Positions 6,420-10,743 of a stretch of DNA of 10,743 nucleotides are shown one piece after another. The stretch comes from Desulfocapsa sulfexigens (GTDB lineage: Bacteria > Desulfobacterota > Desulfobulbia > Desulfobulbales > Desulfocapsaceae), in assembly GCA_015661935.1 (NCBI GenBank), contig DQVD01000120.1, positions 1 through 10,743 on the forward strand, given 5' to 3'. Numbering within the stretch: the stretch's first letter is position 1; each line of letters starts with the position of its first letter. The notes below the pieces were generated by a model. That model searched no databases. It was not told where the DNA came from and saw nothing but the letters and a program-made list of their open reading frames with translations. The position numbers and the translations under genes were made by a program.

Positions 6420-7244
6420 ATGGGAGAACATCAGCAACAAGTAGAACAATGTGTTTCTTTTTTGCGTGATGCCCTCCCCTTTTCTCCTGACATTGTAATT
6501 CAACTTGGGACTGGCCTTGGTCATTTCGGTGATACTATTGAAAGTGTCCTCAGCCTGCCCTATAGTGATATCCCTCATTTTCCAAAATCCACCGTCGCCA
6601 GCCATAAAGGCAACCTGGTTCTTGGATATCTTGGAGAAAAAAAAGTAGCCATTCTTCAAGGAAGATTTCACTTCTACGAAGGATACTCCACCAAAGAAGT
6701 CACCTTCCCCATTCGGGTACTTTCTCTTCTTGGTGCAAAAACACTCATTCTCACAAATGCGGCGGGTGGACTAAACCCACTTTTTCTTCCCGGCTCCATC
6801 ATGATCCTCCGGGATCATCTTAATTTTCTAGGAGAAAATCCTCTACGCGGGCCAAATGTAGACAACTGGGGTCCCCGTTTCCCTGATTTTTCCATCCCTT
6901 ATCATCCTGGGCTGATAAAACTCGCACTGGATAGTGCGAGCCGTTGTAAAATCCAAAATGTTATCAGTGGAGTGTATGTTTGTATCCCGGGCCCAAGCCT
7001 TGAGACACCTGCTGAAACCAGATGGCTAAGAGAATGTGGTGCCGATGCAGTTGGCATGTCTTCCGTTCCTGAATGTATTGTGGCAAAACATGCCGGCATG
7101 GATATTCTTGGTTTGTCAGTTGTTTCCAATGTCAACGATCCCGATAATTTTGAACCCATCATCCTGGAAGACATTATCGCCACAGCAGAAGCCATGGAGG
7201 CAAAACTTGCGCAATTGCTTATAGAGATTGCAATAAATATATAA
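6420..7244 (+). CDS. Purine nucleoside phosphorylase (trimeric PNP/MTAP family), probably 6-oxopurine type
   Basis: It cleaves a purine nucleoside with phosphate to base and ribose-1-phosphate. The trimeric PNP/MTAP signatures are all present: LGTGLGHFGD (phosphate loop), SHKGNL, QGRFHFYEGY, LTNAAGGLNP, CIPGPSLETPAE with the base-binding Glu, GMSSVPE, and VVSNVND with the Asn that reads a 6-oxo group in human PNP. Human MTAP instead has Asp here for adenine. The position matching the human PNP His257 that contacts the 5'-OH appears to be Leu, which could accommodate a 5'-methylthio group. The deaminase gene next to it makes methylthioinosine (or inosine) a logical substrate. Other in-frame ATGs are at 6387 (inside thrC) and 6411; none has a strong ribosome site. 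The one at 6420 is chosen because it gives a normal N-terminus. Family sure, exact substrate inferred. Confidence 0.88.
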   Translation: MGEHQQQVEQCVSFLRDALPFSPDIVIQLGTGLGHFGDTIESVLSLPYSDIPHFPKSTVASHKGNLVLGYLGEKKVAILQGRFHFYEGYSTKEVTFPIRVLSLLGAKTLILTNAAGGLNPLFLPGSIMILRDHLNFLGENPLRGPNVDNWGPRFPDFSIPYHPGLIKLALDSASRCKIQNVISGVYVCIPGPSLETPAETRWLRECGADAVGMSSVPECIVAKHAGMDILGLSVVSNVNDPDNFEPIILEDIIATAEAMEAKLAQLLIEIAINI

Positions 7245-7269: not shown

Positions 7270-8595
7270 ATGAGACAAGAAACGGATCTTATCATTTCGG
7301 GAAGTTATCTCCTGCCGGATGCCAACCATAAAAGTCTCATTTCCAATGGCGCCATCGCGATAATTGGCGACACTATTACAGCCATCGGCACAAAAGAAAC
7401 AATTCTTTCTGAATTCTGTACCAGCCGGCATATCCATACAGATCACGGCCTCATCATGCCTGGCCTTATCAATACCCACACCCATGCTGCCATGGCATGT
7501 TTTCGCGGACTTGCTGATGATTTGCCGCTTATGACCTGGCTTGAAGAGCATATCTTTCCGGTGGAAGCGCGCTGGACACCGGAAATGGTTTATCAATCCA
7601 CCCTGCTCTCAATAGCAGAAATGATCAAATCCGGAACCACCAGCTTTTGCGATATGTATCTCTTTTCCAAAGAGGTGGCACGTGCCACTGAGGAATCCGG
7701 TATGCGTGCCTGGATAGGCGAAGTGCTTTATGACTTTCCGTCCCCTTGTTATGGAGAACTGGAAAATGGCTTTTCGTATACAGATGAGCTTTTTTCCCAA
7801 TATAAAAACCATCCGTTAATTTCGATCACTACTGATCCCCATGCAGTTTATACCTGCTCACCTGAACTGCTCTCAAGGCTTGGGCAAGTTGCACAGGATT
7901 ATGATTCTCTATACGTAATTCATCTTTCCGAAAACGAAGATGAAGTCAAAAGTTGCAAAGAACGCTACAATTGCAGCCCGGTAGAACATCTTGAACATTT
8001 AGGCCTTCTTGGCCCGAAAACCTTGGCTGTCCATTGCGTAATGCTTGATAATAAAGAAATAGAACTTCTTGCAGAACGTAAAGTTAAAGTATCCCACTGT
8101 CCGGAATCCAACATGAAACTGGCATCGGGTACTGCACCAATTGTTAAGATGCTGAAAGCCGGAATCACTGTTGGAATTGGAACTGACGGGGCAGCGTCCA
8201 ACAACGATGTGGATATGTTTGGGGAAATGAACACCGTTGCCAAAATCCATAAAGTCGCACACATGGATCCAACTGCCATGAATGCCGAGCAAACTCTTCA
8301 TGCAGCAACTCTTGCAGGGGCTAGATCTTTAAGTGCTGAAAAACAGATCGGTTCTCTTGAAGTTGGGAAAAAAGCCGACATGATTGTACTGAATATGAAT
8401 CAGCCTCATCTTACGCCATTGTATAACATTCCATCTCATCTGGTTTATGCTGCAAGGGGTGTTGATGTTATTCATTCAATCATTAACGGACGTGTTGTCA
8501 TGGAATCAAGAGAGTTAAAAACCCTTGACGAAAACAGGATTCTTGCTCAGATGCGTGAAATAGGGCAAAACATTGCCAACCATGGAAAGGATTGA
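7270..8595 (+). CDS. mtaD: Amidohydrolase: 5-methylthioadenosine/S-adenosylhomocysteine deaminase type
   Basis: This 441-residue metal-dependent amidohydrolase is predicted to deaminate 5'-methylthioadenosine, S-adenosylhomocysteine or a related adenosine derivative to the inosine form. The N- and C-terminal beta-sandwich segments (LIISGSYLLPD; GKKADMIVLN) flank a TIM barrel. Metal and catalytic residues are visible in order: H70 and H72 in GLINTHTHAAM, H218 and E221 in VIHLSENEDE, H255 in AVHCV, H276 in SHCPESNMKLASG, and D306 in GTDGAASNN. The SHCPESNMKLASG-x-AP and GTDGAASNN-x-DMFGEM motifs are typical of the MTA/SAH deaminase branch. It follows the phosphorylase by 25 bp. The substrate cannot be fixed from sequence alone, because related enzymes prefer adenosine, 5'-deoxyadenosine or other analogues. 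There is no strong Shine-Dalgarno. Confidence 0.88.
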   Translation: MRQETDLIISGSYLLPDANHKSLISNGAIAIIGDTITAIGTKETILSEFCTSRHIHTDHGLIMPGLINTHTHAAMACFRGLADDLPLMTWLEEHIFPVEARWTPEMVYQSTLLSIAEMIKSGTTSFCDMYLFSKEVARATEESGMRAWIGEVLYDFPSPCYGELENGFSYTDELFSQYKNHPLISITTDPHAVYTCSPELLSRLGQVAQDYDSLYVIHLSENEDEVKSCKERYNCSPVEHLEHLGLLGPKTLAVHCVMLDNKEIELLAERKVKVSHCPESNMKLASGTAPIVKMLKAGITVGIGTDGAASNNDVDMFGEMNTVAKIHKVAHMDPTAMNAEQTLHAATLAGARSLSAEKQIGSLEVGKKADMIVLNMNQPHLTPLYNIPSHLVYAARGVDVIHSIINGRVVMESRELKTLDENRILAQMREIGQNIANHGKD

Positions 8596-9591: not shown

Positions 9592-9903
9592 ATGAAAAAC
9601 CGCCGCGACTATGAACGTCTTCTAATTCGCAAATTCGCACTTCTCAAACTTGCCAATGGTGAAATAATTGAAGGACAGACCCGTGATATGAGTGTGGGAG
9701 GTGCCTTTATTGAATGTGAACCGGACGTTGATTTGTCGGAAGGTACAGAATGTACAATCAGGCTGATGCTTGATGAAGAAGGCAGAGAGCTGACAACAGA
9801 AATATACGGTACTATCACACACAGCGACAGTGAAGGATTAGGGTGTCATTTCCTGAAGGTAAATGCCATCTATTACCAGTTCATCGGGGCGCTCTATGAC
9901 TGA
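9592..9903 (+). CDS. Small PilZ-domain protein, likely c-di-GMP binding
   Basis: This 103-residue single-domain protein has both PilZ nucleotide-binding motifs: RxxxR (R5-D-Y-E-R9) and DxSxxG (D32-M-S-V-G-G). The barrel strands that follow (AFIECEPDVDLSEGTECTIRL, TTEIYGTITHSDSEGLGCHF) complete the domain. It is a probable cytoplasmic c-di-GMP receptor that would act on a partner such as a flagellar, pilus or exopolysaccharide component; the partner is unknown. The ATG at 9592 is preceded by AAAGGTG at close spacing. In-frame ATGs at 9562 and 9439 would add 10 or 51 residues. The longest form would carry a hydrophobic N-terminal segment encoded partly by the TCTG heptads, which I judge an artefact. 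It stands alone between a terminator and a decayed region. Confidence 0.8.
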   Translation: MKNRRDYERLLIRKFALLKLANGEIIEGQTRDMSVGGAFIECEPDVDLSEGTECTIRLMLDEEGRELTTEIYGTITHSDSEGLGCHFLKVNAIYYQFIGALYD

Positions 9904-9973
9904 GTCCACCTTCAACGCGATCAGAAGAAACCAATACCTGCAAGTTCCCTCCTCTACCTCAGGCTGATGATAA

Positions 9974-10220
9974 CGCGCCCTGCTGAGGTCCCAAACCAGA
10001 ACCTCGGGCCGGGTTCACAATCATGCGGGCTATACCATCCAGCCATTTGTTTCCACTTTCCTTGTAACACTGGTGGGTGCAGTTCCCCAGGTAGCCACAC
10101 TTCCGACTATTCGGAATACACTTGGGACAATTTCAACTCGAATCGGACCGATCAGAAACAACTACAAAGTAACTCCGGGATGTTACGCTGTGGGTAATCC
10201 CAATGCGGGATTTCCGGTTC
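9974..10220 (+). pseudogene. Decayed N-terminal fragment of an HgcA / corrinoid iron-sulfur protein-like gene
   Basis: The frame open from 9974 (just after a TAA at 9971) reads HNHAGYTIQPFVSTF, then GAVPQVATL, TLGTISTRIGPIRNNYKV and TPGCYAVGNPNAGFPV. This resembles the N-terminal part of HgcA, the corrinoid protein of mercury methylation, and its CdhD/CFeSP-like relatives. There the consensus, as I recall it, is G-x-VP-x-V-x-T, R-x-G-x-x-R-x-x-Y-x-V-x-PGLYAVG-x-P, then SPVLVTANYK. Differences such as PGC for PGL and FPV for SPV suggest drift. The signature cap-helix motif NVWCAAGK and the C-terminal membrane domain are absent. The frame runs straight into the palindromic repeat at 10222 and ends at 10318. 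No start codon or ribosome site is seen. It is a non-functional remnant. HgcA itself and an HgcA-like paralogue cannot be told apart from this fragment. Confidence 0.55.
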
Positions 10221-10221
10221 C

Positions 10222-10279
10222 TAAGTGCCTTATCAGAATTTTTTTGAGAAAAATAAGATATTGTTCCGTAAGACACTTA
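10222..10279. repeat. Palindromic (MITE-like) repeat, copy B
   Basis: This 58-bp element begins TAAGTGCCTTATCAGAA and ends TTGTTCCGTAAGACACTTA. Its outer six bases TAAGTG/CACTTA are a perfect inverted repeat, and an imperfect stem extends inward to an A/T-rich centre. The left end matches copy A over 17 of 17 bases and the right end over 15 of 16. GTTC occurs directly before it (10217-10220) and after it (10281-10284), a possible 4-bp target duplication if one extra base on each side belongs to the element. It interrupts the HgcA-like remnant. Confidence 0.62.
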
Positions 10280-10516
10280 TGTTCTGCCAACGCATCCATG
10301 CTGATCTGTGAAGTGTGAATTTTCATCTTACTCCTCCTGCGTCCACTTATTATGGCCGGTGACCAGTTTTTCTCTCCAGAAAAACGCTCTTTGGAAAAGA
10401 TTTCGTTTACTCTTATCGGCATATTTAAAAAATTGTTAATAGCTCCACTGCCCTTTCATCTTGACAAGAAACGTCTTACGGTGTAAGCATCTGGGTCCGC
10501 CTATTCTTTTTGTATC

Positions 10517-10535
10517 TTACCTCTAGATAAGGTAA
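10517..10535. promoter_or_regulatory. Palindrome upstream of the amidotransferase gene
   Basis: TTACCT and AGGTAA form a 6-bp inverted repeat around CTAGATA. ATTCTTT (10503-10509) and AAAGAAT (10536-10542) could extend it, with a bulge on the left arm. It lies about 84 bp before the start codon, so it may be an operator or a leader hairpin. There is no run of T after it that would make it a terminator. Confidence 0.3.
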
Positions 10536-10618
10536 AAAGAATCTTAAATACAACACGAAAATAATCCTGTCGGTTTTTTCAAATCAACAGGTCTCTTTTA
10601 ACTAATCAGGAGTAATGC

Positions 10619-10743
10619 ATGTGTCGTTTAGCCCTGAAAACCGCCAGTGAGGCCTTCTCGCCGTATGAAGTGCTTCAGGGGATGGAGGCAATGCAGGAAG
10701 GTTACGATGGATCCGGCCTTGGACTTCTTCTGCGCGGTCTTGA
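10619..10743 (+). CDS. Class II glutamine amidotransferase (GltB-type glutaminase domain), 5' part
   Basis: The gene is cut by the right window edge; 41 complete codons are present. The product starts Met-Cys-Arg-Leu-Ala-Leu. After Met removal the Cys would be the N-terminal nucleophile that releases ammonia from glutamine in the Ntn-hydrolase amidotransferases. Later residues (GMEAMQEGYDGSGLGLLLRG) fit the N-terminal part of the glutaminase domain seen in split, archaeal-type glutamate synthase subunits. The ATG at 10619 is preceded by AGGAG with 6-nt spacing. An out-of-frame ATG at 10615 is not used. It probably heads an operon with the other glutamate synthase subunits, which cannot be seen here. 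Confidence 0.75.
   Translation, partial: MCRLALKTASEAFSPYEVLQGMEAMQEGYDGSGLGLLLRGL

What the first reader, a model, noticed from the sequence alone, without database searches (positions are those of the whole stretch)
9974..10318. Decayed HgcA/CFeSP-like corrinoid gene fragment
The plus-strand frame reads GYTIQPFVSTF, GAVPQVATL, RIGPIRNNYKV and PGCYAVGNPN in the order found at the start of HgcA, the mercury-methylating corrinoid protein, or its uncharacterised relatives. The cap-helix NVWCAAGK and the membrane domain are missing, and no start codon is visible. A relic of this gene would document loss of Hg methylation or of a related C1 function in this lineage.
Basis: partly seen in the sequence, partly recalled or inferred. 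Interest (0 to 1): 0.72.

Follow-up and report, generated by a model that had tools for sequence, protein, structure and literature searches.

The report
Relic of a mercury-methylation gene (hgcA)
This bacterium carries the broken front end of hgcA, a gene that makes toxic methylmercury and that in close relatives appears to use the rare amino acid selenocysteine; it marks a place where this lineage lost the gene, and sister species carry other scraps at the same spot.

Summary
A 69-codon block (10013-10219) in the quoted frame is 55-67% identical to HgcA of four same-genus genomes and matches the NCBIfam HgcA profile (E 5e-8). Those four orthologs are full HgcA (422-428 bits, cut-off 275) next to HgcB, between the same neighbour genes as in the window (G018, G006; G011 and G002 fit in part). 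The window copy is dead: no ATG/GTG/TTG before its N-terminal motif, a frame break, and loss of the last ~280 codons, hgcB and more. A dispersed ~56-bp repeat sits at the junction, followed by the first 17 codons of a gene that lies 5-6 kb away in relatives. Sister species G015 and G004 (weaker: G014) keep different hgcB scraps at this site; G015 also has an intact hgcAB of another HgcA lineage elsewhere. So this is a syntenic relic of a selenoprotein-type hgcA, with at least two separate deletions in the genus. Loss of mercury methylation is inferred only; the genome is 78% complete.

The parts
9592..9903 (+). pilZ gene, left anchor
   Evidence: PF07238 E 2.5e-11 (scanned from 9439); left of hgcA in G018 and G006, partial match in G011
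9960..10013 (+). hgcA relic, N-terminal piece ADDNAPC-TGA-GPKPEPRAG (TGC 9981-9983, TGA 9984-9986), in another frame from the next piece; its frame runs back to a stop at 9897-9899 without ATG/GTG/TTG
   Evidence: translation of three frames and 12 relatives; codons
10013..10219 (+). hgcA relic, 69-codon block; start of the corrinoid domain, ends about 78 codons after the Sec site
10222..10277 (.). core of a dispersed palindromic repeat at the junction (a few bases on either side may belong to it)
10276..10341 (-). 5' stub of the conserved 431-aa gene (ATG at 10324-10326, 17 codons) with its upstream bases
   Evidence: 77.8% identity over 27 aa, E 1.45e-8, the last five aa lie in the repeat
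   Evidence: 95-100% identity over 41 aa in G018, G011, G002, G006

Best explanation
The stretch is a dead remnant of hgcA of the selenoprotein type that stood between pilZ and the right anchor in an ancestor within this genus (shown by homology and synteny). The intact gene's product would be a membrane corrinoid protein that, with HgcB, methylates mercury (known for the family, not assayed for these orthologs); its N-terminal Cys-Sec pair is predicted, not proved. In this species the copy has no usable start, has a frame break, and is cut about 78 codons after the Sec site; a deletion of roughly 5 kb (4.8-5.6 kb measured on three relatives) removed the rest of hgcA, hgcB, a flavin oxidoreductase gene and most of a 431-aa gene, and a dispersed repeat lies at the join. 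That recombination between repeat copies made the deletion is inference; the repeat may have inserted later. I propose no function for the remnant: it is expected to give no working HgcA.
For: HgcA profile match; 66% identity to a same-genus ortholog; orthologs are full HgcA, 422-428 bits, with HgcB beside them; same gene order; Cys-TGA-Gly-Pro motif in the window and in 11 of 12 relatives inspected, Cys-Cys in others; no start codon; two frames; 431-aa gene stub beyond the repeat; different scraps in G015 and G004 at the same site.
Against: Substitution patterns do not show decay: pN/pS 0.25-0.38 against 0.17-0.40 in intact pairs, and 1 of 11 near-invariant positions changed, as in 22 of 98 controls. 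RNAalifold found no consensus SECIS. tRNA-Sec above cut-off is not seen in this genome. A single MAG contig; no second assembly of the relic was found.
Confidence: 0.92

Rival explanations
1. Assembly artefact: the organism has an intact hgcA and the contig is mis-joined or mis-called.
For: The genome is a fragmented assembly (435 contigs, 78.1% complete), and a repeat present at many places lies exactly at the junction.
Against: The right side is the 5' end of a gene that stands in the right order and orientation in G018, G002 and G006, so the join looks like a plain internal deletion. Even if two repeat copies had been wrongly merged, hgcA would still run into a repeat at codon 78. The missing start and the frame break lie outside the repeat. 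G015 and G004 show scars of their own at this site.
Confidence: 0.05
2. Relic of an HgcA-like or CFeSP-like corrinoid protein with another C1 function, not of mercury methylation.
For: HgcA and the CFeSP gamma subunit share the corrinoid domain: the seven relatives scanned reach 77-84 bits with PRK04165.
Against: The same seven pass the HgcA equivalog cut-off (411.7-428.2 against 275) and stay far under that of PRK04165 (306); NVWCA is present in the four same-genus orthologs and HgcB lies next to them. None was assayed here, so another natural substrate stays possible.
Confidence: 0.04
3. The open 81-codon frame from GTG 10073 is a live short gene that reuses the hgcA front end.
For: The frame is still open and differences from G018 fall mostly on third codon positions (15, 14, 46).
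Against: Its end is repeat sequence; a search of about 5.8 billion proteins found no homologue of this ORF (limited to proteins of similar length); third-position bias is also what a formerly live gene would show.
Confidence: 0.02

Closest known systems
HgcA, mercury methylation corrinoid protein (NCBIfam NF040863), with HgcB (NF040864)
   Same: The fragment matches the first 46 profile positions; orthologs at the same site pass the cut-offs for HgcA and HgcB
   Different: The window copy lacks start, frame, cap-helix motif, membrane part and hgcB
Selenoprotein forms of HgcA (motif CU) and HgcB (motif GVGU)
   Same: Cys-TGA-Gly-Pro-Lys at 9981-9995 as in the intact Sec-type relatives; the form is listed in a review table (PMC13188914, passages seen) and cited to Haft and Gwadz 2023 (PMC11588087, passages seen; the paper itself is not held)
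   Different: Here the gene is a pseudogene; published work is on intact predictions as far as seen
Patchy loss of hgcAB in Desulfobulbus and others (PMC7862947)
   Same: Distribution said to be driven by transfer and loss (one passage seen)
   Different: Here physical remnants are seen at one syntenic site in several species

Membership tests
HgcA, working member | NF040863 score over the curated cut-off of 275 bits | tested here: not met
   32.4 bits for the fragment; the four same-genus orthologs 422.3-427.5
HgcA, working member | cap-helix motif NVWCAAGK | tested here: not met
   absent from the window's reading frames there; present in the four orthologs
HgcA, working member | C-terminal membrane domain | tested here: not met
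   homology ends after about 78 codons
HgcA, working member | hgcB next door | tested here: not met
   none in the window; no HgcB over cut-off in this genome; present beside four orthologs
Remnant of hgcA (homology and synteny) | significant match to HgcA and same neighbours as intact orthologs | tested here: met
Selenoprotein-type HgcA (ancestral state) | in-frame TGA between conserved coding stretches, with Cys homologues | tested here: met
   11 of 12 relatives TGC-TGA, one Cys-Cys; Cys at the place in many of 119 loci
Selenoprotein-type HgcA (ancestral state) | SECIS hairpin after the TGA | tested here: inconclusive
   a chosen 6-pair helix is paired in 0.73 of cells in 28 Sec rows, 0.38 in 37 Cys rows, at most 0.52 in 100 shuffles; RNAalifold gave no structure
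Selenoprotein-type HgcA (ancestral state) | Sec insertion machinery in the genome | tested here: inconclusive
   SelB present, 372.4 bits; no tRNA-Sec over cut-off in this genome, 61 of 136 candidates scored
Selenoprotein-type HgcA (ancestral state) | Sec in the protein | not testable with these tools
   needs mass spectrometry or 75Se labelling
CFeSP / CdhD corrinoid subunit | match above cut-off to an acetyl-CoA synthase corrinoid subunit | tested here: not met
   no such match for the fragment; seven relatives at 77-84 bits against 306

The most novel reading that the evidence does not exclude
In this Desulfocapsa-like genus the Sec-type hgcAB beside pilZ is a place of repeated loss: at least two, perhaps three or four, separate deletions left different scraps in sister species, and at least one of these (G015) now holds an intact HgcAB of a deep, separate lineage without the Cys-Sec motif elsewhere in its genome, so that a selenium-dependent mercury methylation system was lost and a selenium-independent one gained.
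Probability: 0.45. Interest if true: 0.62.

Novelty: new member of a known kind. Interest (0 to 1): 0.5.

Why it matters
The natural role of hgcAB and the reason for its patchy distribution are open. Physical scars at one syntenic site show the direction (loss rather than absence of gain), and a set of sister species with intact, broken and apparently replaced copies makes it testable what goes along with loss. It also warns that hgcA fragments in metagenomes can come from dead copies, and that a gene finder that does not read TGA would shorten selenoprotein-type hgcA.

Tried and rejected
Plasmid collection, blastn of 9904-10620: no match. Solved structures for the fragment: 0. Pfam on the fragment: 0. 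Protein search of the 81-aa ORF 10073-10315: no homologue. Substitution tests of decay did not separate the relic from live genes. RNAalifold on the stretch after the TGA gave no structure, and shuffled columns did as well or better; a fixed-helix count followed, the helix being the best of many, with shuffles searched in the same way as control. Promoter/terminator scan 9880-10743: 2 promoter-like sites against 1.1 in shuffles, 0 terminators against 1.0. The CFeSP reading was rejected. The 8 weak extra matches of the fragment in the own genome are all copies of the repeat, not hgcA. G014 as a further relic: E 5e-4 to 0.003, while 1 of 20 shuffled sets reached 0.001: suggestive only. G004: its protein match alone is noise (E 0.05-0.1).

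Rows dropped and limits: 3 of 119 HgcA rows for shortness and 18 as duplicates, leaving 98; 95 of 99 rows in the fragment tree. Sec/Cys/none labels come from a text pattern and mislabel some rows (L076 and L126 have Cys-Cys but count as none). The printout hid rows whose letters contain WIN, which removed some rows of one hgcB query; its values are taken. One search scored 16 of 93 candidates in the own genome, so its count is a lower bound.

Full report
What is there. It matches the NCBIfam HgcA profile NF040863 at E 5.2e-8 over profile positions 1-46 and nothing in Pfam. A search of 56 genomes (the own one and 55 relatives) found matches at E<=0.01 in 28 of 56; the best outside the own genome are 360-362-codon open frames in four genomes of the same genus, G018 (E 6.9e-26), G011 (3.4e-24), G002 (1.3e-23) and G006 (2.5e-21). 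The core homology is an ungapped block of 69 codons, 10013-10219.

What the gene was. Seven relatives were scanned, the four same-genus orthologs among them: all 7 pass the HgcA equivalog cut-off (411.7-428.2 bits against 275), and none that of the CFeSP gamma model. Beside the four same-genus orthologs lies HgcB, 120.7-125.3 bits against a cut-off of 99. G018 and G006 have, in order, deaminase, tatA, tatA, pilZ, hgcA, hgcB, a flavin oxidoreductase (PF00724, scanned in G018), a short protein with a CxxCH motif (no Pfam match), a 431-aa gene (no Pfam match) and the right anchor; G011 has the same order with only a partial pilZ match and no match to the 431-aa gene; in G002 hgcA lies at a contig end beside the same right-hand genes, and pilZ at the end of another contig. 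G018 and G002 have one more gene in between. The window has the left anchors, the relic and the right anchor: it is the orthologous site.

In front of the relatives' 360-codon frames stands TGC TGA, preceded by an open frame: 11 of 12 relatives inspected have TGC TGA followed by Gly-Pro; the twelfth, L019, has Cys-Cys-Gly-Gly. The window has TGC TGA GGT CCC AAA at 9981-9995, in a different frame from the 69-codon block and preceded by DDNAP. Over 119 HgcA loci the place is held by TGA or by a Cys codon, or the motif is missing; by script label 30 Sec, 40 Cys and 28 neither in 98 non-redundant rows, 27 of the 30 Sec rows in one clade with support 100/97. A helix after the TGA is paired in 0.73 of cells in 28 Sec rows, 0.38 in 37 Cys rows and at most 0.52 in 100 shuffles, but RNAalifold found no consensus. 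This is the predicted selenoprotein form of HgcA: a review table lists HgcA with motif CU and HgcB with GVGU (PMC13188914, passages seen), and PMC11588087 (passages seen) cites Haft and Gwadz 2023 for it; that paper is not held. The Sec form is therefore not new.

Why the copy is dead. (a) In the frame of the Cys-TGA motif there is a stop at 9897-9899 and no ATG, GTG or TTG in the 27 codons before TGC. (b) The piece with the motif and the 69-codon block lie in different frames. (c) Homology stops about 78 codons after the Sec site; what follows is a dispersed repeat, core 10222-10277. One search lists 16 places in this genome, this one included, the other 15 at 80-88% identity (16 of 93 candidates scored), and matches in 9 of the 55 other genomes; one search adds 7 more places in this genome, one of them in the window itself at about 977-1034; 15 copies are aligned with the window's. 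(d) Beyond the repeat, on the minus strand, is the start of the 431-aa gene (27 residues, 77.8% identity, E 1.45e-8, the last five in the repeat). In G018, G002 and G006 the two end points lie about 5.6, 5.4 and 4.8 kb apart (my arithmetic from coordinates). Substitution statistics do not show decay; this fits a loss that is recent compared with the divergence, or too few sites.

Is the function elsewhere in the genome? The HgcA profile finds only the relic, and no HgcB reaches the cut-off in G000, against 26 of 56 genomes that have one. The genome is 78.1% complete in 435 contigs, so another copy could be missing. SelB is present; tRNA-Sec over cut-off is seen in 49 of 56 genomes but not in G000.

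Sister species. All 20 genomes of the genus, the own one included, have the tatA anchor. The site was fetched in the 19 others and compared. In 4 of 19 intact hgcA stands there (G018, G011, G006; G002 at a contig end). In 8 of 19 the stretch from pilZ to the right anchor is spanned and holds no intact hgcA (G001, G003, G004, G007, G008, G010, G012, G016). In G014 no pilZ match was found and the stretch from tatA to the right anchor holds no intact hgcA. In 6 of 19 (G005, G009, G013, G015, G017, G019) the contig ends or the fetched stretch does not reach both anchors. Scraps: G015 has hgcB pieces (25 residues, 64-76% identity, E 1.5e-8 to 1.4e-9, with further pieces in another frame), preceded by TGCTGAGGTTCTAAA, 13 of 15 bases like the window's hgcA motif (the BLAST match there, 14 of 16 bases, has E 2.3 on its own). 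G004 keeps what looks like the last codons of hgcB right after pilZ: the protein match alone is noise (E 0.05-0.1), but its DNA is 78% identical over 145 bases to the G015 scrap and what follows (E 2e-26; alignment), of which only about 30 bases are hgcB. G014 has a weak match. The window keeps hgcA codons that were not found in G015, and G015 keeps hgcB that the window lacks; neither state can come from the other, so at least two deletions happened, and the common ancestor still had both genes at least in part. A tree of four neighbour genes, rooted at the midpoint, puts the four intact genomes together (support 62; 99 without G011) and the window in a neighbouring group (88) with G003, G004, G007, G008, G009, G010, G014, G015 and G017; inner branches are weak, 40-55 in places, and the branch joining the two groups has 45. 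A tree of the fragment alone puts the window with L010-L013 (G018, G011, G002, G006; support 50) and with these plus L059 and L062 (95).

Replacement. G001, G005, G007 and G015 carry other HgcA, 409.7-430.1 bits, labelled as without the Cys-Sec motif, in a deep clade (100/99) with G027, G033 and the long-branched L028, which does have Cys-TGA-Gly-Gly. The G007 locus starts 10 residues before the match, so its N-terminus is not seen. HgcB over cut-off is on the same contig in all four. G012 has a Sec-type hgcA on contig C25 while its pilZ site on C69 holds none. For G015 this means scar plus intact pair of another lineage; that the second pair came by transfer is inference.

Taxon. G018's contig has the length 91584 of JAQYVF010000004.1, Desulfocapsa sp. 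MAG Sva_acohol_bin16; NCBI places Desulfocapsa in Desulfocapsaceae, Desulfobulbales.

Literature. Ten searches (hgcA with selenocysteine, selenoprotein, pseudogene, Desulfocapsa, vertical inheritance plus loss, methylmercury plus remnant, and mercury methylation plus gene loss plus phylogeny; hgcAB with gene loss plus horizontal gene transfer, with selenocysteine, and with methylmercury plus pseudogen) listed no paper whose title or start of abstract reports an hgcA pseudogene. Passages of four of the listed papers were checked and speak of other things; the rest were seen as listings only. The library holds open-licence papers only, so this is a weak negative. PMC7862947 (one passage seen) states that hgcAB distribution appears driven by transfer and loss.

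Verdict. A genuine syntenic relic of a selenoprotein-type hgcA, one of at least two separate deletions in its genus. A pseudogene of a known gene is an ordinary kind of thing; the set of scars at one site, and the apparent replacement in G015, are the part of interest.

Noticed in passing
window 10222-10277 and about 977-1034; L002-L008, L153-L167: A palindromic repeat of about 56 bp, at 23 places at least in this genome; most aligned copies share a further conserved stretch to the left that the window's junction copy lacks. It resembles a MITE or REP element (by eye); family not determined.
   Followed up: partly
L144 (G015) 2150-2310; L138 (G004) 1823-1870; L137 (G014) about 6900-6960: Scraps of hgcB, and in G015 perhaps of the hgcA Cys-TGA motif, at the syntenic site; the G014 one is weak.
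   Followed up: partly
L038 (G015), L039 (G005), L040 (G001), L043 (G007): Intact HgcA of a deep, separate lineage in the same genus, at other contigs, with HgcB nearby.
   Followed up: partly
L023 (G050) and L066: HgcA with a further in-frame TGA about 60 residues after the match start: a broken gene, a sequencing error or a second Sec.
   Followed up: no
G027:C95, G033:C1, G001:C32: HgcB matches over the cut-off with a TGA inside the frame, possibly the published GVGU selenoprotein form of HgcB.
   Followed up: no
L030 (G011) 8427-8543: pilZ of G011 gives only a partial match of 39 residues, and G014 gives none at this site, so pilZ itself may be decaying there.
   Followed up: no
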